Of a stretch of DNA of 38,544 bases, positions 1 to 38,544 are shown in pieces. The first letter of the stretch is position 1. Each line of letters opens with the position of its first letter. Origin of the DNA: Thermithiobacillus tepidarius DSM 3134 (GTDB lineage Bacteria; Pseudomonadota; Gammaproteobacteria; Acidithiobacillales; Thermithiobacillaceae); NCBI RefSeq assembly GCF_000423825.1, contig NZ_AUIS01000027.1, positions 1 through 38,544 of the forward strand, given 5' to 3'. The notes beneath the pieces are model-generated. The model was given only the letters and a program-made list of their open reading frames with translations. It was not told where the DNA came from and did no database searches. A program made the position numbers and the translations under genes.

Positions 1-95
1 GAGGAAGAGGGAGGAAGAGGGAGGAAGAGGGAGGAAGAGGGAGGAAGAGGAAGAGGAAGAGGAAGAGGAAGGAGCGGCTTCAGTCGCGAACACCC
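1..95. repeat. GA-rich tandem repeat plus REP-like tail (left terminal copy)
   Basis: The window opens with tandem copies of a 10-mer (AGGAAGAGGG), changing to 6-mer units (GGAAGA) around 50-70, and then a short tail containing GGAGCGGCTTCAGTCGCG. The tail resembles the dispersed GAGCGGCTTC..TCGCGA repeats known from several gammaproteobacteria. The same 95 bases, without a mismatch, end the window at 38450-38544. No gene is present. Confidence 0.95.
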
Positions 96-144: not shown

Positions 145-376
145 GTAGGAGCGAGCTTGCTCGCGATCCACTGTGCCGACCAGCGCGCAATCGCGGGCAA
201 GCCCGCTCCCACAGCCTGGGATGCCGGTCCGCCAGGCTTGGCACGGCGCCGCAGTCGCCCGGGACACCCTCTCCCTTGGTGGAGAGGGCAGGGTGAGGGG
301 ACAGTGGTGCGAAGGCCCGACTATCGCCCCGGACCGCGCTGCCGCCGCCAGCCGTAGGAGCGGGCTTGCCCGCGAT
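145..376. repeat. REP-like repeat cluster with a hairpin, downstream of the PAP2 gene
   Basis: This holds three REP-like units of the form GTAGGAGCGAGCTTGCTCGC or its GCGGGCTTGCCCGC variant: direct at 145-167, inverted at 188-210, direct at 354-376. Between them, at 267-300, is a second repeat type with an 8-bp stem (267-274 pairs with 281-288, CCCTCTCC/GGAGAGGG) followed by GCAGGGTGAGGGG. The same element types recur at 5402-5550 and 37118-37265. The rest of 96-472 shows no convincing gene; short frames there are shadows of the repeats. For the minus-strand PAP2 gene this is the 3' side, where such elements often affect transcript ends. Confidence 0.85.
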
Positions 377-4022: not shown

Positions 4023-5246
4023 ATGACTACGCCCACGCGCGACATGGACCAGCGGGACGGCAGAGCGGCGGACCGGGACGAGGAGGAGATCTCCCTGCTG
4101 GATCTCCTGATCGTGCTGGCCAAGCGCAAGCGCCTGATCGCCACGGTCACCCTCGTCCTGGTGCTGGCCGCGGTGGCGGCCAGCCTGCTGATGACCCCCA
4201 TCTACACGGCCACCACCAAGATCCTGCCGCCCCAGCAGCAGCAAAGCGGCGCCGCGGCCATGCTGGCCCAGACCCTGGGCGGCATGGCCGGCTTGGCGGG
4301 CGGCGCGTTGGGGCTGAAGACCCCCAACGACCTCTACATCGGCATGCTCAAGAGCCGCACCGTCGCCAAGACCCTGATCGACAAGTACGACCTGCAGAAG
4401 CGCTACAAGACCAAGACCCTGGACGACACCTACAAGGCGCTGGAAGCCAACACCGAGATCAAGGCGGGCAAGGACAACATCATCAGCATCGCCGTGGACG
4501 ACAAGGACCCCCGCTTCGCCGCCAAGCTGGCCAACGCCTACGTGACCGCGCTGGAGGGCCTCACCGACAAGCTCGCCGTCGGCGAGGCCTCGCAGCAGCG
4601 CGTGTTCTTCGAGCGCCAGCTGAAGACGGCCCACACCCAGCTGTCCGAGGCCGAGGACCAGTTGCGGGCCATCCAGGAAAAGACCGGCGTCATCCAGCCC
4701 ACCATGCAGGCCAGCATGGTCATGCAGGCGGTGGCGCAGGCCAAGGCGGAAATCGCCGCCAAGGAAGTGCAGCTGGCCGGCATGCGCGCCTTCGCCACCG
4801 CCCAGAATCCCGACTACGCCCGCGCCCTGCAGGAGCTGGACGCCCTGCGGGCCAAGCTGCGGCAGTTGGAGCAGAGCAACCCCGAGGCCAAGGGCGACGT
4901 CATGACGCCCACCGGCGAAGTGCCGAGGCTGGGGCTGGCTTATGGCCGCCAACTGCGCGAGGTGAAATACCGCGAGGCGCTCTTCGAGCTCATGGCCAAG
5001 CAGTACGAGATGGCGCGGCTGGACGAGGCCAAGGAGGCGCCGCTGATCCAGGTGCTCGATCCGGCCACGCCGCCGGCCCACAAGAGCAAGCCCAAGCGCA
5101 TGCTCATGGTTGCCCTGGCCGGCGTGGTGGGCCTGTTCATCGGCATCTTCTGGGCCTTCATCCGCGAAGCCGCCGAGCGCCAGCGCCAGGACCCCGAGCA
5201 GGCCGAACGCCTGGCTCTCCTGCGCCGCTACACCTGGGGCCGCTGA
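4023..5246 (+). CDS. Wzz/GumC-type chain-length determinant, no kinase domain
   Basis: This 407-aa inner-membrane polysaccharide co-polymerase has the family layout. A short cytosolic N-terminus is followed by TM1 (about 38-58), then a large periplasmic region with a long Gln/Ala/Glu-rich helical stretch (about 190-330), a Pro-rich motif ([14 protein letters not shown], about 345-359), and TM2 (about 360-380). Such proteins set the modal chain length and contact the Wzy polymerase and the outer-membrane exporter. After TM2 only 27 residues remain, with no Walker motifs and no Tyr-rich tail, so this is not a Wzc-type autokinase, and no separate kinase or phosphatase gene lies in the window. 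It is probably co-transcribed with the SLBB gene (10-bp gap). Confidence 0.9.
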
Positions 5247-5275
5247 CTCCAGCCCCGCAGCGACCGGCACGGGCC

Positions 5276-5584
5276 GTAGGAGCGAGCTTGCTCGCGATAA
5301 ACATTTTCTTTATCGCGCAGCCCCCCGCAGCCCAGGATTGCGGGAATCAACTGTCCGCGATCAGTTCCCGCTGCCGCCGCGGCATCCCGCGGCCACAAGC
5401 AGTAGGAGCGAGCTTGCTCGTGACCGGCCTTTCGTCCGGCGTGATTCGCGGGCCAGCCCGCTCCTGCAACGTCCGGCACGCAGCGTCGGAGCGGGCAAGC
5501 CCGCAACCCGCTTTGCTCCCTCTCCCGCCGGGAGCGGCCCAGGGTGAGGGCAGCACAACCTGTAGGAGCGAGCTTGCTCGCGAA
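5276..5584. repeat. REP/BIME-like repeat block between the export and galU operons
   Basis: The 470-bp gap 5247-5716 holds REP-like units GTAGGAGCGAGCTTGCTCG(C/T) at 5276-5298, 5402-5424 and 5562-5584, inverted units near 5446-5470, and a GC-rich unit near 5486-5508. A CCCTCTCCCGCCGGGAGCGG element follows at 5518-5537. The part 5402-5550 is a composite that recurs almost unchanged at 37118-37265; 5425-5485 matches 37141-37201 with two differences. An open frame runs through the block into galU, but it is repeat-derived and I do not treat it as coding. The last 80 bp before galU are AT-richer (around 5668-5685) and probably carry its promoter, although I see no strong consensus pair. Confidence 0.9.
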
Positions 5585-5716
5585 AAAACGCCCCGGGGGG
5601 CCACACGCCGCCCCCTCGGAAAAACCGGCGCAAAGGCGAACGATATCGATCGGCCCGGGTCCGATCCTTACATATTACTAAAACAACGATCACACCAAAG
5701 GTTGAGAGGCACGCAG

Positions 5717-6655
5717 ATGACCAAGATACGCAAGGCGGTATTTCCGGTGGGTGGATTGGGGACGCGGTTTTTGCCGGCGACCAAGGCCAGCCCGAAGGAG
5801 ATGCTGCCGATTGTCGACAAGCCGCTGATCCAGTATGCCGCCGAGGAAGCCATTGCCGCCGGCTGCGACCAGCTCATCTTTGTCACCGGGCGCGGCAAGC
5901 GCGCCATTGCCGACCACTTCGACGTCTCCTACGAACTCGAAGCGGAACTGGAAAGCCGCGGCAAGCAGGCGCTCTTGGAGCAGGTGCGCAAGATTCTGCC
6001 CAAGCACGTCTCGGCGGTGTTCATCCGCCAGGCCCAGCCGCTGGGGCTGGGGCACGCGGTCTACTGCGCGCGCCCGGTGATCGGCGACGAGCCCTTTGCC
6101 GTCTTGCTGGCCGACGACCTCATCCTGGCCGAGCAGCCGGTACTGGCGCAGATGGTCGAGCGCTTCGAGCGCTACAACGTCGGTCTTCTGGCGGTGCAGG
6201 AAGTGCCGCGCGCCGAGACCAAGCACTACGGCGTGGTGGACGGCAAGCCCTGGGACGAGCGGCTGCACCATGTTGCCGGCCTGGTGGAAAAGCCCAGTCC
6301 CGAGACGGCGCCCTCCAACCTGGCGGTGATCGGCCGCTACATCCTGCCGGCGCGCATTTTCCATCACCTGGAGCACACCCCGACGGGGGCGGGCGGCGAG
6401 ATCCAGCTCACCGACGCCATTGCCCGGCTGCTCGAAGAAAAGCAGGTGCTGGCCTACCAGTTTGCCGGTCAGCGCTTTGACTGCGGCGACAAGCTCGGCT
6501 ACCTCAAGGCCACCCTCGAATACGCCCTGCGCCACCCGCAGGTCGGCCAAGCCTTCGCCCAATACCTCAGCCACTACTGCCAGGAACTGGGCATCGGGAA
6601 CGAGGAACTGGTGGCCAAGCAGGCGGACATGGTGCTGCCCAAGATGGTGGGTTAG
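5717..6655 (+). CDS. galU: UTP--glucose-1-phosphate uridylyltransferase
   Basis: This 312-aa cytosolic enzyme makes UDP-glucose from UTP and glucose-1-phosphate. The nucleotide-binding loop ([20 protein letters not shown], residues 12-31) is canonical, as is the following [13 protein letters not shown] segment; the LLADDLIL metal and sugar site is also present. The length is normal for bacterial GalU. ATG 5717 is chosen because it begins exactly at the conserved [13 protein letters not shown] start. The in-frame extension upstream would translate REP repeats. UDP-glucose feeds Ugd (8913) and GalE (37380) in the same window. A 127-bp gap separates it from gmd. Confidence 0.96.
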
Positions 6656-27291: not shown

Positions 27292-27353
27292 ATCGCGGGT
27301 ACGCCCGCTCCTGCGCTGCATGTTTTGGACGTAGGAGCGAGCTTGCTCGCGAT
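27292..27353. repeat. REP-like inverted pair inside the sugar cassette
   Basis: An inverted unit (27292-27315, TCGCGGGTACGCCCGCTCCTG type) and a direct unit (27331-27353, GTAGGAGCGAGCTTGCTCGC) face each other across a 15-base spacer, in the 150-bp gap between the SDR gene and the RmlC-like gene. Transcribed, they could form a long hairpin and lower expression of the distal genes. Confidence 0.88.
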
Positions 27354-29517: not shown

Positions 29518-30492
29518 TTGGCTACTCAGTTGCCTTTGGTCAGTGTGATCATTCCGGCTTACAACCGGTCGCAGTACCTGCGGGAAGCCATTGCCGGCGC
29601 CGTCGCCCAGACGTATCGCAACATCGAGATCATCGTTTCCGACGACGCCAGCCCGGACAGCCCGGAGCCGTTGGTCCGCAGCTTCAACGACCCGCGCATC
29701 CGCTTCCGCCGCAACGTGAGAAATCTCGGCATCGGCGGCAATGTCACCGTCGCCTGCCGCGAGGCGCAGGGCAAGTACCTGGCCTTTTTGAACGATGACG
29801 ACGTGTGGCATCCGGATTTTCTCGAAAAGCTGGTGCCGCCGCTGGAAGCGAATCCTGATTTGGTCATCGCCTTTTCGGATCACTATCTCATGGATGCGGA
29901 TGGCGCGATCGACTTTGCGGCTACGGAGCAAAATACCCGCCGCTACAAGCGCGACCGCTTGCGGGAAGGGGTCTACAAACCGTTCATTCGCATGGCCCTG
30001 CTGGATCTGACCGTGCCGGCGGCCATGGCCACCGTGTACCGCAGGGACGCCATTGAGTGGGACGTGCCGCCGCAGGCGAGCTACAACTACGATTTCTACT
30101 TCATGTATCTTGCCTGCCGCGATGGACGAGGGGCCTATTACTGTCCGGAACGGCTGACGCGCTATCGCAGCCATGGCAGTTCAGCAACCGCCGCTGTGGG
30201 CATGCATCTGGCAGGCTACTTCGTGCATTGGTACGAGCGTTTTTTGCAGGACGAACGTCTGCGCCCGTTTCACCCGCTCTTCAGAAAGAAGTTGGCGCAG
30301 CGGAACCAGACCTGGGGTTATGCCTTGCTGAGCGAGGGCCGGCTCTCGGAAGCGCGCGGCAGGCTGATGGCAGCGCTTCGCGGCGGCAGGCTCAACCCGG
30401 GGCTGCTCACCGCGATCCTGCTCAGCTACACCTCGCCGGCACTGGTTGGCGGGGCACTGGCTACTTATCGGTCCATCAGGTCCGCGTTGTGA
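29518..30492 (+). CDS. GT2-family glycosyltransferase (tandem copy 1)
   Basis: This 324-aa GT-A enzyme has LVSVIIPAYNRSQYL (7-21), IEIIVSDDASPD and the DxD site in LNDDDVW (91-97). It begins with TTG 29518, preceded by AAAGGAG with 6-base spacing. No ATG is nearby, so the TTG start is likely genuine. The C-terminal third has no membrane segment and carries aromatic-rich YFMYLACRDGRGAYYCPERL (about 193-212), which is shared with the next gene. The 135 bp between the two hold no gene. It probably adds a sugar to the repeat unit; donor unknown. Confidence 0.92.
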   Translation: MATQLPLVSVIIPAYNRSQYLREAIAGAVAQTYRNIEIIVSDDASPDSPEPLVRSFNDPRIRFRRNVRNLGIGGNVTVACREAQGKYLAFLNDDDVWHPDFLEKLVPPLEANPDLVIAFSDHYLMDADGAIDFAATEQNTRRYKRDRLREGVYKPFIRMALLDLTVPAAMATVYRRDAIEWDVPPQASYNYDFYFMYLACRDGRGAYYCPERLTRYRSHGSSATAAVGMHLAGYFVHWYERFLQDERLRPFHPLFRKKLAQRNQTWGYALLSEGRLSEARGRLMAALRGGRLNPGLLTAILLSYTSPALVGGALATYRSIRSAL

Positions 30493-30627: not shown

Positions 30628-31656
30628 ATGTCCATCACGGCAGAAGCACAAAAATCCTTGGTAAGCGTCATTATTCCAACCTATAACCGTCCGAAATACC
30701 TGCCGGCCGCCATCGCCAGCGCCGTTGCCCAGACCTATCGCAACATCGAGATCATCGTCTCCGACAATGCCAGTCCGGAGAGCCCGGAATCGCTGGTCCG
30801 CAGCTTCAACGACCCGCGCATCCGCTTCCGCCGCAACGGCACCAACGTCGGCATGCTGGCCAACTTCCTGGCCGCCGTGCGGGAGGCCAAGGGCAAGTAC
30901 GTCGCCTTTCTCCACGATGACGACACCTGGCTGCCCGAGTTCCTGGAACGTCTGGTCCCGGCACTGGAGGAAAGCCCGGATCTGGTGCTGGCTTTCTCCG
31001 ACCTGCATTTGATGGATGCCAAAGGCGCCATCGACCGCGCCGCGACCGAAAGGCACAAGCTCCACTACAATCGCGGCGGCCTGGGCCAGGGCATCTACAA
31101 GCCTTTCATTCGGCTGGGCCTGGTGGACCGCGCCGTGCCCGCGGTCATGAGCACCATTTATCGCAAGGACGCCATCGACTGGAACGCTTTCCCGCCGGAG
31201 TCCGAGCATACCTACGATCTGTACCTGACCTACCTCGCCTGCCGCGACGGGCAGGGGGCCTACTATTGCCCCGAGCGCCTCACCAACTACCGGGTCCACG
31301 AATCCCAGGTGACCAATACCGGCCGCCTCAAGCTGGCCAAGTCCTTCGTCTTCTGCTACGAGCAGTTCCTCAAGGACGAACGCCTGCGCGCCTATCACCC
31401 CGAGTTCCGGAAAAGGCTCGCCTTCCACCAGGAAGCGCTGGGTTGCGCCCTCCTGCGTGCCGGCCAGGCCCACGAATCGCGCCAGGCGCTGCTGAAGGCG
31501 ATCAGAGGCGGGCGCGTCAATCTGCACACCGTCGGCGCGCTCATGGTGGGAGCGGCTCCCAAGCCGCTCAGCAGCCATATCGTGGATGACAAAAAAAAGC
31601 CGCCGGTGACCCTGCCGCCTGCCACCGTGTCCCAGGCCGGAGGCCAGAAGGCGTGA
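30628..31656 (+). CDS. GT2-family glycosyltransferase (tandem copy 2)
   Basis: This 342-aa paralogue of the preceding gene has LVSVIIPTYNRPKYL (11-25), the DxD site in LHDDDTW (95-101) and the same AYYCPERLTNYR segment. The two proteins align over their length, with copy 2 adding a Lys/Pro-rich tail (about 318-342). At the DNA level 30794-30838 is identical over 45 bases to 29672-29716, so the pair arose by duplication or gene conversion and has since diverged. A GGAGGGGAG site precedes ATG 30628. The duplication suggests two similar linkages or donors in the repeat unit. Confidence 0.92.
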   Translation: MSITAEAQKSLVSVIIPTYNRPKYLPAAIASAVAQTYRNIEIIVSDNASPESPESLVRSFNDPRIRFRRNGTNVGMLANFLAAVREAKGKYVAFLHDDDTWLPEFLERLVPALEESPDLVLAFSDLHLMDAKGAIDRAATERHKLHYNRGGLGQGIYKPFIRLGLVDRAVPAVMSTIYRKDAIDWNAFPPESEHTYDLYLTYLACRDGQGAYYCPERLTNYRVHESQVTNTGRLKLAKSFVFCYEQFLKDERLRAYHPEFRKRLAFHQEALGCALLRAGQAHESRQALLKAIRGGRVNLHTVGALMVGAAPKPLSSHIVDDKKKPPVTLPPATVSQAGGQKA

Positions 31657-35187: not shown

Positions 35188-37047
35188 ATGGCTTTTGTTT
35201 TGGGCATCAATGCATACCACGGCGACGCCGCCGCCTGCCTCATCCAAGACGGCAAGCTGATCGCGGCGGCGGAGGAAGAGCGCTTCCGCCGGATCAAGCA
35301 CTGGGCCGGTTTCCCGTCCGAAGCCATCCGCTACTGCCTCGATGAAGCGGGCATCAAGCTCGACCAGGTCGATCACGTCGCCATCAATCGCGATCCCAAG
35401 GCCAACATCTGGAAGAAGCTGAGCTTCACCCTGGCCAAGCGGCCCGATTTCGGCCTGGTGCGCGACCGCATCAAGAACGCGCGCGAGTGGGCCTCCATCG
35501 AGGAGGAGCTGGGCCGCGCCTTCCCCGGCGAGCGCTTCCGCGGCCAGGTGCACAACATCGAGCACCACATGGCGCATTTGGCGTCCGCCTTCCTGGTCTC
35601 GCCCTTCGAAGAAGCGGTGGCCGTCTCCGTGGACGGCTTCGGCGACTTCGCCAGCGCCGCCTGGGGCGTGGGCCGGGGCAGCGAGATCACCGTCGAGGAC
35701 AAGGTCTACTTTCCGCACTCGCTGGGCATCTTCTACCAGGCCCTGACCCAGTACCTGGGCTTCCCGCACTACGGCGACGAGTACAAGGTCATGGGCCTGG
35801 CGCCCTACGGCCAGCCGCGCTACATGGACGAGATGCGGCGCATTGTCGCCCTGCAGGACGACGGCTCCTTCCGCCTCAACCTGGACTACTTCCGCCACCA
35901 CAAGGAAAAGGTCGAGTACGAGTGGGAAAACGGCATCCCCGCGGTCGGCCGCCTCTTCACGCCCGCCTTGGAGGAGCTGCTGGGCAAGGCGCGCGACAAG
36001 AGCGACGAACTCACCCAAAAGCACAAGGACATCGCCCGCTCGGTGCAGGCCATGTACGAGGAAGCCTTCTTCCACCTGCTCAACACCCTGCACCGGCGCC
36101 ACGGGCTGGACGCCGTCACCCTGGCCGGCGGCTGCGCCATGAACTCGGTGGCCAACGGCAAGGTGTACCGCAACACGCCCTTCAAAAAGGTCTACATCCA
36201 GTCCGCCGCCGGCGACGCGGGCGGCGCCATCGGCGCGGCCTTCGTGGTCTGGCATCAGGTCAGCCAGGACCCGGCCCGCTTCGTCATGGACCACGCTTAC
36301 TGGGGCCCGCAGTTCAGCGACGATGCCGTGGGCGAGCTCGTGGCCGGCAAGCAGCAGGCGCTGGCGGACGAACGCTGCTCGGTGGAGCGCGTGCAGGACG
36401 AGGCCGAGCTGTGCCGCCGCACCGCCCAGGCCATCGCCGAGGGCAAGGTGGTGGGCTGGTTCCAGGGGCGCATGGAGTGGGGCCCGCGCGCCCTGGGCAA
36501 CCGCTCCATCGTCTGCGACCCGCGCCGCGCCGACATGAAGGACATCCTCAACCTCAAGATCAAGCGCCGCGAATCCTTCCGTCCCTTCGCGCCGTCCATC
36601 CTGCGCGAGGCGGTGCCGGCCTGGTTCGAGACCGACGACGACGTGCCCTTCATGATGCAGGTCTACCAGATCCGGGAGGACAAGCGTCCCGAGATCCCCG
36701 CCGTCACCCACGTGGACGGCTCCGGGCGCCTGCAGACGGTCTATGCGGACACCAATCCGCGCTACCACCGGCTGATCAAGTCCTTCGAGGAGCTCACCGG
36801 CGTGCCCATCGTCCTCAACACCTCCTTCAACGAGAACGAGCCGGTGGTCTGCCGCCCCATGGAGGCGCTCGACTGCTTCCTGCGCACCAAGATGGACGTG
36901 CTGGTGCTGGGCGACACCTTCATCAGCCGGCGCGAGGCCGCAGAGGGCACCGAGCCGGCCGGCTCCGAAGCCAACGCGGACGCCGCTGACGGCATGGCGG
37001 ACACCGGCACTTACGCCGGCGGCAGGACGCGGCGGGTGGTGCCCTGA
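35188..37047 (+). CDS. NodU/CmcH-family carbamoyltransferase
   Basis: This 619-aa enzyme transfers a carbamoyl group from carbamoyl phosphate, through carbamoyl-AMP, to a hydroxyl. The N-terminal kinase-like domain begins VLGINAYHGDAAACLI (4-19) and has EHHMAHLASAF (125-135), with the metal-binding His126/His130 region, and SVDGFGDF (147-154). Further on are TLAGGCAMNSVANGK (about 309-323), GDAGGAIGAAF, and the C-terminal domain GRMEWGPRALGNRSI and FRPFAPSI. In polysaccharide clusters (NodU-like in capsule and O-antigen loci) it O-carbamoylates sugars. The last 40 residues are low-complexity (Ala/Gly/Thr) and may be frayed. GGGGGT lies before ATG 35188. It may be co-transcribed with the WbaP-like gene (100-bp gap). 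Confidence 0.93.
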   Translation: MAFVLGINAYHGDAAACLIQDGKLIAAAEEERFRRIKHWAGFPSEAIRYCLDEAGIKLDQVDHVAINRDPKANIWKKLSFTLAKRPDFGLVRDRIKNAREWASIEEELGRAFPGERFRGQVHNIEHHMAHLASAFLVSPFEEAVAVSVDGFGDFASAAWGVGRGSEITVEDKVYFPHSLGIFYQALTQYLGFPHYGDEYKVMGLAPYGQPRYMDEMRRIVALQDDGSFRLNLDYFRHHKEKVEYEWENGIPAVGRLFTPALEELLGKARDKSDELTQKHKDIARSVQAMYEEAFFHLLNTLHRRHGLDAVTLAGGCAMNSVANGKVYRNTPFKKVYIQSAAGDAGGAIGAAFVVWHQVSQDPARFVMDHAYWGPQFSDDAVGELVAGKQQALADERCSVERVQDEAELCRRTAQAIAEGKVVGWFQGRMEWGPRALGNRSIVCDPRRADMKDILNLKIKRRESFRPFAPSILREAVPAWFETDDDVPFMMQVYQIREDKRPEIPAVTHVDGSGRLQTVYADTNPRYHRLIKSFEELTGVPIVLNTSFNENEPVVCRPMEALDCFLRTKMDVLVLGDTFISRREAAEGTEPAGSEANADAADGMADTGTYAGGRTRRVVP

Positions 37048-37084
37048 AGGCCGCCCGAGCCCGCTCCTGCATCGCACGCTGGAC

Positions 37085-37265
37085 GTAGAAGCGAGCTCGC
37101 CCGCGATCTCGCCAATCGTAGGAGCGAGCTGGCTCGCGATCGGCCTTTCGTCCGGCGTGATTCGCGGGTAAGCCCGCTCCTGCAACGTCCGGCACGCAGC
37201 GCAGGAGCGGGCTTGCCCGCGATCCGCATCGCTCCCTCTCCCCCGGGAGAGGGCCGGGGCGAAGG
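37085..37265. repeat. REP/BIME-like repeat block between the carbamoyltransferase and galE
   Basis: This contains direct REP-like units at 37085-37107 and 37118-37140, an inverted unit at 37159-37182, and another direct unit at 37201-37223. A 9-bp GC stem follows (37234-37242 pairs with 37245-37253, CCCTCTCCC/GGGAGAGGG). From 37118 on it is the second copy of the composite at 5402-5550. The stem could end transcription of the carbamoyltransferase gene, but no T-run follows. Confidence 0.92.
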
Positions 37266-37321
37266 CGATGTCTCCCGGTGCCGTCCGCCTCCTGAGGGAA
37301 AACCATCCCTCCATGCCATGC

Positions 37322-37350
37322 TTGCCCGCCATCCCGCCACTCCCGATAAT
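37322..37350 (+). promoter_or_regulatory. Candidate sigma-70 promoter for galE
   Basis: TTGCCC (37322-37327) and GATAAT (37345-37350) are separated by 17 bp. They match the -35 consensus in 4 of 6 bases and the -10 in 5 of 6. The -10 lies 29 bp before the galE ATG, which would give a short leader. No competing gene is in the region. Confidence 0.55.
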
Positions 37351-37379
37351 CTACTGACTATCCCTCACCGGAGACACCC

Positions 37380-38357
<978 letters not shown>

Positions 38358-38430
38358 GGGGAGATGAGCCTTTAGGCGGCATCCACCGCGTCGGAAATGA
38401 CAGGAATGGGGAGAGCAGAGGGAGAGAAAG

Positions 38431-38544
38431 AGGAAGAGGGAGGAAGAGGGAGGAAGAGGGAGGAAGAGGGAGGAAGAGGGAGGAAGAGGGAGGAAGAGGA
38501 AGAGGAAGAGGAAGAGGAAGGAGCGGCTTCAGTCGCGAACACCC
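38431..38544. repeat. GA-rich tandem repeat plus REP-like tail (right terminal copy)
   Basis: The 10-mer AGGAAGAGGG repeats six times from 38431, changes to 6-mer units at about 38497, and ends with the same GGAGCGGCTTCAGTCGCG tail as the window start. The last 95 bases (38450-38544) are identical to 1-95; the right copy has two further 10-mer units upstream that the left copy lacks because the window starts there. Confidence 0.95.

What the first reader, a model, noticed from the sequence alone, without database searches (positions are those of the whole stretch)
5402..5550. Composite BIME-like element duplicated at the two ends of the cluster
5402-5550 and 37118-37265 share the same order: direct REP, conserved spacer, inverted REP, conserved spacer, second unit and GC hairpin. 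5425-5485 and 37141-37201 differ at only two of 61 bases, including spacer not required for the REP stems. This suggests mobilisation of the whole composite, not independent REP hits. The two copies bracket the core of the locus in direct orientation, so recombination between them could delete or swap about 31.7 kb.
Basis: partly seen in the sequence, partly recalled or inferred. Interest (0 to 1): 0.5.

Follow-up and report, generated by a model that had tools for sequence, protein, structure and literature searches.

The report
Ordinary REP repeats, bracketing mostly incidental
Two copies of a scattered bacterial repeat flank part of a sugar-polymer gene cluster; such repeats are abundant in this genome, and the apparent bracketing of 31.7 kb probably reflects how the draft assembly cut the chromosome at a different, much longer repeat.

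Summary
In detail: window 5402-5550 and 37118-37265 match at 130 of 149 columns, and the middle 61 bases differ at 2. The genome matches Thermithiobacillus tepidarius DSM 3134T in size. The element is a GTAG-type REP composite (REPIN/BIME mosaic): 268 REP-core hits here, 0-1 in each of 39 related genomes. A REP-associated tyrosine transposase gene lies among REPs on contig C1. This exact spacer occurs only twice, but near-identical spacer pairs are common (29 pairs among 52 REPINs, 26 between contigs), and extended composites recur (20 of 171 pairs of chosen stretches share at least 110 bp at 80% or more). Whole-composite copying is plausible but routine. The bracketing claim fails on context. 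The window is a whole contig whose first and last 95 bases are identical, and its galU holds an 876-bp block 100% identical to one on C1 with unrelated flanks. Re-pairing the flanks of that repeat gives one linear chromosome, collinear with a related genome, in which the composites lie 6.7 kb apart around galE-PAP2-wza-wzz. If about 38 kb is ever deleted or excised, the galU repeat is the likelier cause. No reads were available to prove the re-linked order.

The parts
5402..5424 (+). copy 1, REP with GTAG tag, 1 mismatch to the core pattern
5425..5445 (.). copy 1, spacer between the inverted REPs, found only here and at 37141
5446..5467 (-). copy 1, inverted REP
5468..5484 (.). copy 1, linker, shared in diverged form by other sites of the genome
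5485..5507 (+). copy 1, third REP
5518..5550 (.). copy 1, GC palindrome CCCTCTCCC...GGGTGAGGG; a similar element lies at 267-299
37118..37140 (+). copy 2, REP with GTAG tag
37141..37161 (.). copy 2, spacer identical to copy 1
37162..37183 (-). copy 2, inverted REP, 1 mismatch to the core pattern
37184..37200 (.). copy 2, linker
37201..37223 (+). copy 2, third REP
37234..37265 (.). copy 2, GC palindrome, diverged from copy 1
147..212 (.). another REPIN of the same family in the window, with a different spacer
354..376 (+). single REP
5276..5298 (+). single REP just upstream of copy 1
5562..5584 (+). single REP just downstream of copy 1
27293..27353 (.). REP pair inside the locus core (inverted plus direct REP)
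37085..37107 (+). degenerate REP (1 mismatch) just upstream of copy 2
5717..6592 (+). 876-bp block inside galU, 100% identical to C1:127619-128494, flanks unrelated; the only stretch of 50 or more exact bases shared by this contig and C1:66000-148500
1..95 (.). contig start, identical to 38450-38544; no other match in the assembly: self-overlap
38450..38544 (.). contig end, identical to 1-95 (GAGGAAGAGG tandem array plus flank)

Best explanation
The two elements are copies of a non-autonomous REP composite of the GTAG type: a REPIN (two inverted REPs around a short spacer) joined by a linker to a third REP and followed by a second, GC-rich palindrome. The genome holds a few hundred REPs of this family. 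They were most likely spread by the cell's REP-associated tyrosine transposase (RAYT/TnpA-REP) acting on folded single strands; nested insertion and occasional gene conversion between copies would produce shared spacers and extended mosaics. The two window copies are sisters by spacer. They do not mark the ends of a mobile 31.7-kb cassette. The contig is probably a stretch of the chromosome that the assembler closed into a loop at an 876-bp identical galU repeat. In the re-linked chromosome the copies are 6.7 kb apart and flank galE, PAP2, wza and wzz. Shown: sequence, hit numbers, transposase gene and its REP flanks, self-overlap, galU identity, gene order in the relative. Inferred: transposition as the cause of spread, gene conversion, and the re-linked order.
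For: 268 exact REP-core hits in this genome (128 + and 140 -, control 1 and 0) against 0-1 in each of 39 relatives. 63 BLAST matches of the composite in its own genome, none in 39 relatives at E <= 0.001. 56 REPINs and 7 pairs of the opposite type by strict patterns. RAYT gene at C1:124600-125064: NF047646 161 bits vs cut-off 80, Y1_Tnp 41.3 bits vs 23, solved TnpA-REP 4er8 at 7.4e-10, REP cores within about 40 bases on both sides. Spacers at edit distance 3 or less: 29 pairs among 52 REPINs, 26 between contigs; minimum of 3000 shuffled pairs 9. 20 of 171 stretch pairs share 110 bp or more at 80% or more, 19 of the 20 between contigs, 7 direct and 13 inverted. Re-linking: self-overlap found nowhere else; dovetails of 95 bases (3 pairs) and 116 bases (2 pairs) among other contig ends; 876-bp exact galU block; order Wza349-ManC-sugar transferase-Ugd-PAP2-Wza-Wzz-GalU-RfbA in relative G001.
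Against: Of 10 REPIN pairs at spacer edit distance 1 or less, the window pair is the only one on a single contig. The homology also covers linker, third REP and GC palindrome, so a plain one-REPIN hop does not explain all of it. The middle 61 bases are better conserved than the rest (2/61 vs 16/87, Fisher p 0.005), which one simple event does not predict. In DNA folds both copies pair REP2 with REP3, not the REPIN doublet REP1-REP2; in RNA only copy 1 pairs REP1 with REP2. 21 of 39 relatives have Y1_Tnp matches without this REP core, so a Y1 transposase alone does not predict these REPs. The C-terminus of the window GalU looks slightly closer to that of G001 than the C1 copy does (by eye), a weak point against re-pairing at galU. 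No reads were available.
Confidence: 0.82

Rival explanations
1. The composite moved as one larger unit (REPIN plus linker plus REP plus GC palindrome) by RAYT-mediated transposition, and the pair is a recent two-member family.
For: Homology stops at element borders and covers all parts. Other sister pairs also share 110-300 bp, more than one REPIN.
Against: The GC palindrome and outer REPs are more diverged than the middle. Linker and palindrome types recur elsewhere, so they could have joined separately.
Confidence: 0.35
2. The pair arose by local duplication or gene conversion within one gene region, not by transposition.
For: In the re-linked order the copies are 6.7 kb apart in direct orientation. 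Another close spacer pair is local (C6:105778/115194), and linker-type copies at C1:88939/95892/98103 look alike by eye. The better-conserved middle fits a conversion tract.
Against: 26 of 29 close spacer pairs are on different contigs, so dispersal is the rule.
Confidence: 0.35
3. One reading: the copies are cassette ends, and recombination between them deletes or swaps the 31.7-kb core.
For: Direct orientation and 31,716-base spacing in contig coordinates. Longest exact shared run 31 bases.
Against: The self-closed contig and the galU repeat imply another order. REPs also lie inside the core and outside the pair. An 876-bp identical repeat is a far better substrate.
Confidence: 0.05
4. C25 is a genuine extrachromosomal circle carrying the polysaccharide locus.
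For: 95-base self-overlap found nowhere else in the assembly, of the same length as three other contig-end dovetails.
Against: No replication, partition or mobilisation family among 28 ORFs scanned with Pfam at E <= 1e-5; 5 of the 28 had no family. In the plasmid collection no record covers 80% of window 1-25000, the best covers 5%. The galU repeat and the gene order of G001 explain the loop.
Confidence: 0.12

Closest known systems
GTAG-tagged REPs (Di Nocera et al. 2013, PMC3733652; abstract, passages, sections 7 and 14 seen)
   Same: GTAG tag, short GC stem-loop, high copy number, dimers with spacers, REP-flanked RAYT
   Different: Thermithiobacillus and Acidithiobacillus are not named in its main text; assignment to one of its 24 GTAG families was not tested
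REPINs (Bertels and Rainey 2011, PMC3116915; abstract and section 11 seen)
   Same: inverted REP doublets with short spacer as repeated unit; clusters explained by insertion into or beside existing REPINs; cluster beside the RAYT
   Different: here the REPIN is embedded in a larger mosaic with a third REP and a second palindrome, and the DNA folds do not favour the doublet hairpin
BIMEs (bacterial interspersed mosaic elements)
   Same: alternating REP orientation
   Different: another REP sequence; protein binding known for BIMEs elsewhere was not tested
RAYT / TnpA-REP (NF047646; PDB 4er8; PMC8266576, abstract seen)
   Same: gene at C1:124600-125064 over the curated cut-off, flanked by REPs
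   Different: activity on this REP untested; a second Y1_Tnp gene on C31 scores under the cut-off (69.6 vs 80)

Membership tests
GTAG REP family | GTAG tag next to a short palindrome | tested here: met
   GTAG at 5402 and 37118 and at many other cores; inner REPs of the composites carry variants (GCAG, GTCG)
GTAG REP family | high copy number in the genome | tested here: met
   268 exact hits, control 1 and 0; a few sites are hit on both strands, such as C2:195575/195578
GTAG REP family | mainly extragenic | tested here: inconclusive
   both composites lie between annotated-size ORFs (5246-5717; 37047-37380); not tested genome-wide
REPIN | inverted REP doublet with short spacer, many copies | tested here: met
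   56 by strict pattern; 34 of 52 examined have a 28-base stretch between cores
REPIN | doublet folds into one hairpin | tested here: inconclusive
   RNA fold of copy 1 pairs REP1 with REP2; RNA fold of copy 2 and DNA folds of both pair REP2 with REP3
REPIN | doublet is the replicating unit | tested here: inconclusive
   dispersed near-identical spacers support it, but homology often extends further
BIME | REPs in alternating orientation | tested here: met
   + - + order in both copies
RAYT (TnpA-REP) in the same genome | transposase of the REP-associated family over the curated cut-off | tested here: met
   P0001: NF047646 161 bits vs 80
RAYT (TnpA-REP) in the same genome | gene flanked by the cognate REPs | tested here: met
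   REP cores at C1:124567 and 125097 and further out around 124600-125064
RAYT (TnpA-REP) in the same genome | cleaves and joins these REPs | not testable with these tools
   needs a protein assay
plasmid (for contig C25) | replication or mobilisation gene | tested here: not met
   none among 28 window ORFs scanned at E <= 1e-5; 5 of the 28 had no Pfam family
plasmid (for contig C25) | circular molecule | tested here: inconclusive
   95-base self-overlap, explained as well by the galU repeat

The most novel reading that the evidence does not exclude
The polysaccharide locus of T. tepidarius is flanked in the chromosome by two identical 876-bp galU segments in direct orientation. Recombination between them pops the locus out as a 38.4-kb circle, so that cells switch between a form with the locus and a form without it, and the draft assembly caught the excised state.
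Probability: 0.12. Interest if true: 0.5.

Novelty: new member of a known kind. Interest (0 to 1): 0.25.

Why it matters
It documents a REP/REPIN expansion with its RAYT in the deep-branching Acidithiobacillia, not seen with this core in the 39 relatives searched. It also shows that repeat-bracketing read from one draft contig can be reversed by a long exact repeat elsewhere. The galU repeat is a testable candidate for locus loss; the REP pair is a poor one.

Tried and rejected
Exact spacer pattern in genome contigs found nothing; records of this genome may be left out there. The search for related loci with the carbamoyltransferase returned 80 loci from mixed phyla and did not name the organism; those loci were not used further. 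The name rests on genome size (2,958,498 bp) and the assembly description (44 contigs in 43 scaffolds), not on a sequence match. Rfam: no match in the window at the gathering threshold. Tandem duplication of the locus in the chromosome was considered and set aside: neighbours carrying the terminal 95 bases would be expected and were not found. The library's insert size is not given in the section read; about 270 bp is recalled.

Limits. One search used 58 termini: the starts of all 43 contigs (C14 and C34 read N there) and the ends of 15, C25 included. The REPIN sister analysis used 50 of 56 strict REPINs (the listing stops there) plus the two window copies; the shuffles did not keep the few conserved bases at the spacer edges, so the null is somewhat lenient. 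The extended-composite comparison used 19 stretches picked because most held close spacer sisters, so 20 of 171 is not a random sample. The 268 core hits include some sites hit on both strands and a few other GC palindromes. G001 is unnamed.

Literature. Search listings. Abstract and outline of PMC5037610, PMC3733652, PMC3116915 and PMC8266576; passages and section 9 of PMC5037610; passages and sections 7 and 14 of PMC3733652; section 11 of PMC3116915; passages of PMC10561277. In one search, 124 papers held two of the terms and 12 were listed, none of the 12 naming Thermithiobacillus; one search listed 2 papers, known to me by title and start of abstract only. So absence from print is not shown.

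Full report
Identity and setting. The window is a whole contig, C25 of 43, of a 2,958,498-base genome. That size is the published one of Thermithiobacillus tepidarius DSM 3134T (abstract), assembled from Illumina reads with Velvet and Allpaths-LG into 44 contigs in 43 scaffolds. The contig is a polysaccharide locus: PAP2, Wza-like export protein, Wzz, GalU, Gmd, an epimerase, Ugd, glycosyltransferases, ManC, a bacterial sugar transferase, a carbamoyltransferase and GalE (gene names follow from family and order). Of 28 ORFs scanned, 5 had no Pfam family at E <= 1e-5.

The observation. The two composites match at 130 of 149 alignment columns, with 2 differences in the middle 61 bases. They are each other's best match genome-wide, and their spacer occurs only at these two places at up to 3 mismatches. 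This is far beyond chance.

What it is. REP-core hits number 268 in this genome, with a control of 1 and 0; a few sites are hit on both strands. Each of 39 relatives has 0 or 1 (6 of them have 1). Strict patterns give 56 inverted doublets and 7 doublets of the opposite type. A RAYT gene at C1:124600-125064 passes the NCBIfam cut-off (161 vs 80 bits), has a solved TnpA-REP relative and lies between REPs. A second Y1_Tnp gene on C31 scores below that cut-off (69.6). The nearest relative G001 has no Y1_Tnp match and 1 core hit. Against a simple rule, 21 of 39 relatives do have Y1_Tnp matches without this REP core; they may serve other repeats, which was not tested.

Is the shared composite special? 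Among 52 REPINs (50 of the 56, plus the two window copies), 29 pairs have spacers at edit distance 3 or less, 26 of them on different contigs; 3000 shuffled pairs never came below 9. Of 171 pairs among 19 chosen stretches, 20 share at least 110 bp at 80% or more, 19 of these between contigs, 7 direct and 13 inverted. The window pair is therefore one of many mosaics, although of the 10 pairs at edit distance 1 or less it is the only one on a single contig. Its middle is better conserved than its outer parts (2/61 vs 16/87, p 0.005), which would fit a gene-conversion tract; that is inference.

Does it bracket the core? REPs also lie at 147-212, 354-376, 5276-5298, 5562-5584 and, inside the core, 27293-27353. 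More important, the first and last 95 bases of the contig are identical and had no other match in the assembly. Among 58 contig termini, three other pairs dovetail by exactly 95 bases (C3 end with C16 start, C16 start with C22 start, C4 start with C23 start) and two by 116 (C6 end and C26 end with C35 start), so the self-overlap looks like an overlap left by the assembly graph. Within galU, 876 bases (5717-6592) are identical to C1:127619-128494, while the sequence on either side is unrelated. In G001 the order is Wza349-ManC-sugar transferase-Ugd-PAP2-Wza-Wzz-GalU-RfbA-RfbC. In this genome C1 reads Wza349-Wzc-like protein-GalU-RfbA-RfbC, and C25, read through its own junction, ManC-sugar transferase-carbamoyltransferase-GalE-PAP2-Wza-Wzz-GalU. 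Exchanging the flanks of the galU block gives one linear chromosome that keeps the G001 order on both sides. In that order composite 2 precedes composite 1 by 6,733 bases and the pair flanks GalE-PAP2-Wza-Wzz. The C-terminus of the window GalU looks slightly closer to that of G001 than the C1 one does (by eye), a weak point against.

Mechanism. Most likely the RAYT spread REPs and REPINs as folded single strands, as proposed for other species (PMC3116915 abstract and section 11; PMC8266576 abstract); later insertions beside existing copies and conversion between copies built the mosaics. Shown here are the anatomy, numbers and gene; movement is inferred. Folds are stronger than shuffles (DNA z -2.16 and -4.50; RNA z -2.16 and -4.67), but only the RNA fold of copy 1 forms the REP1-REP2 hairpin that defines a REPIN; the other three pair REP2 with REP3.

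Recombination. The longest exact run shared by the composites is 31 bases, against 876 for the galU block. If the locus is ever lost or excised, the galU repeat is the likelier cause; the product would be the 38,449-base circle that the contig resembles. A plain assembly artefact explains the same data with fewer assumptions, and no replication gene was found among the 28 ORFs scanned.

Verdict. Real observation, ordinary element, incidental bracketing.

Noticed in passing
1-95 and 38450-38544: Contig ends are identical over exactly 95 bases, with no other match in the assembly: the contig closes on itself.
   Followed up: yes
5717-6592: 876-bp exact identity with C1:127619-128494 inside galU, flanks unrelated: recent conversion, duplication or a collapsed assembly repeat.
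   Followed up: partly
L123 (C1:121500-128500): The RAYT gene sits between RmlD-like and RmlC-like sugar genes; around it single REPs recur at 66-base spacing in one orientation. G001 has no Y1_Tnp match.
   Followed up: partly
L122 (C1:86000-104000): Many REPs of the linker type lie in a second polysaccharide region, some looking alike by eye.
   Followed up: partly
267-299, 5518-5550, 37234-37265: A second GC palindrome family (CCCTCTCCC...GGGTGAGGG) follows REPINs at these three places of the window.
   Followed up: no
38417-38520: GAGGAAGAGG tandem array between galE and PAP2, a possible variable-number repeat.
   Followed up: no
29536-29835 and 30658-30957: 300-base direct repeat at 77%: two neighbouring family-2 glycosyltransferase genes, likely a tandem duplication.
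   Followed up: no
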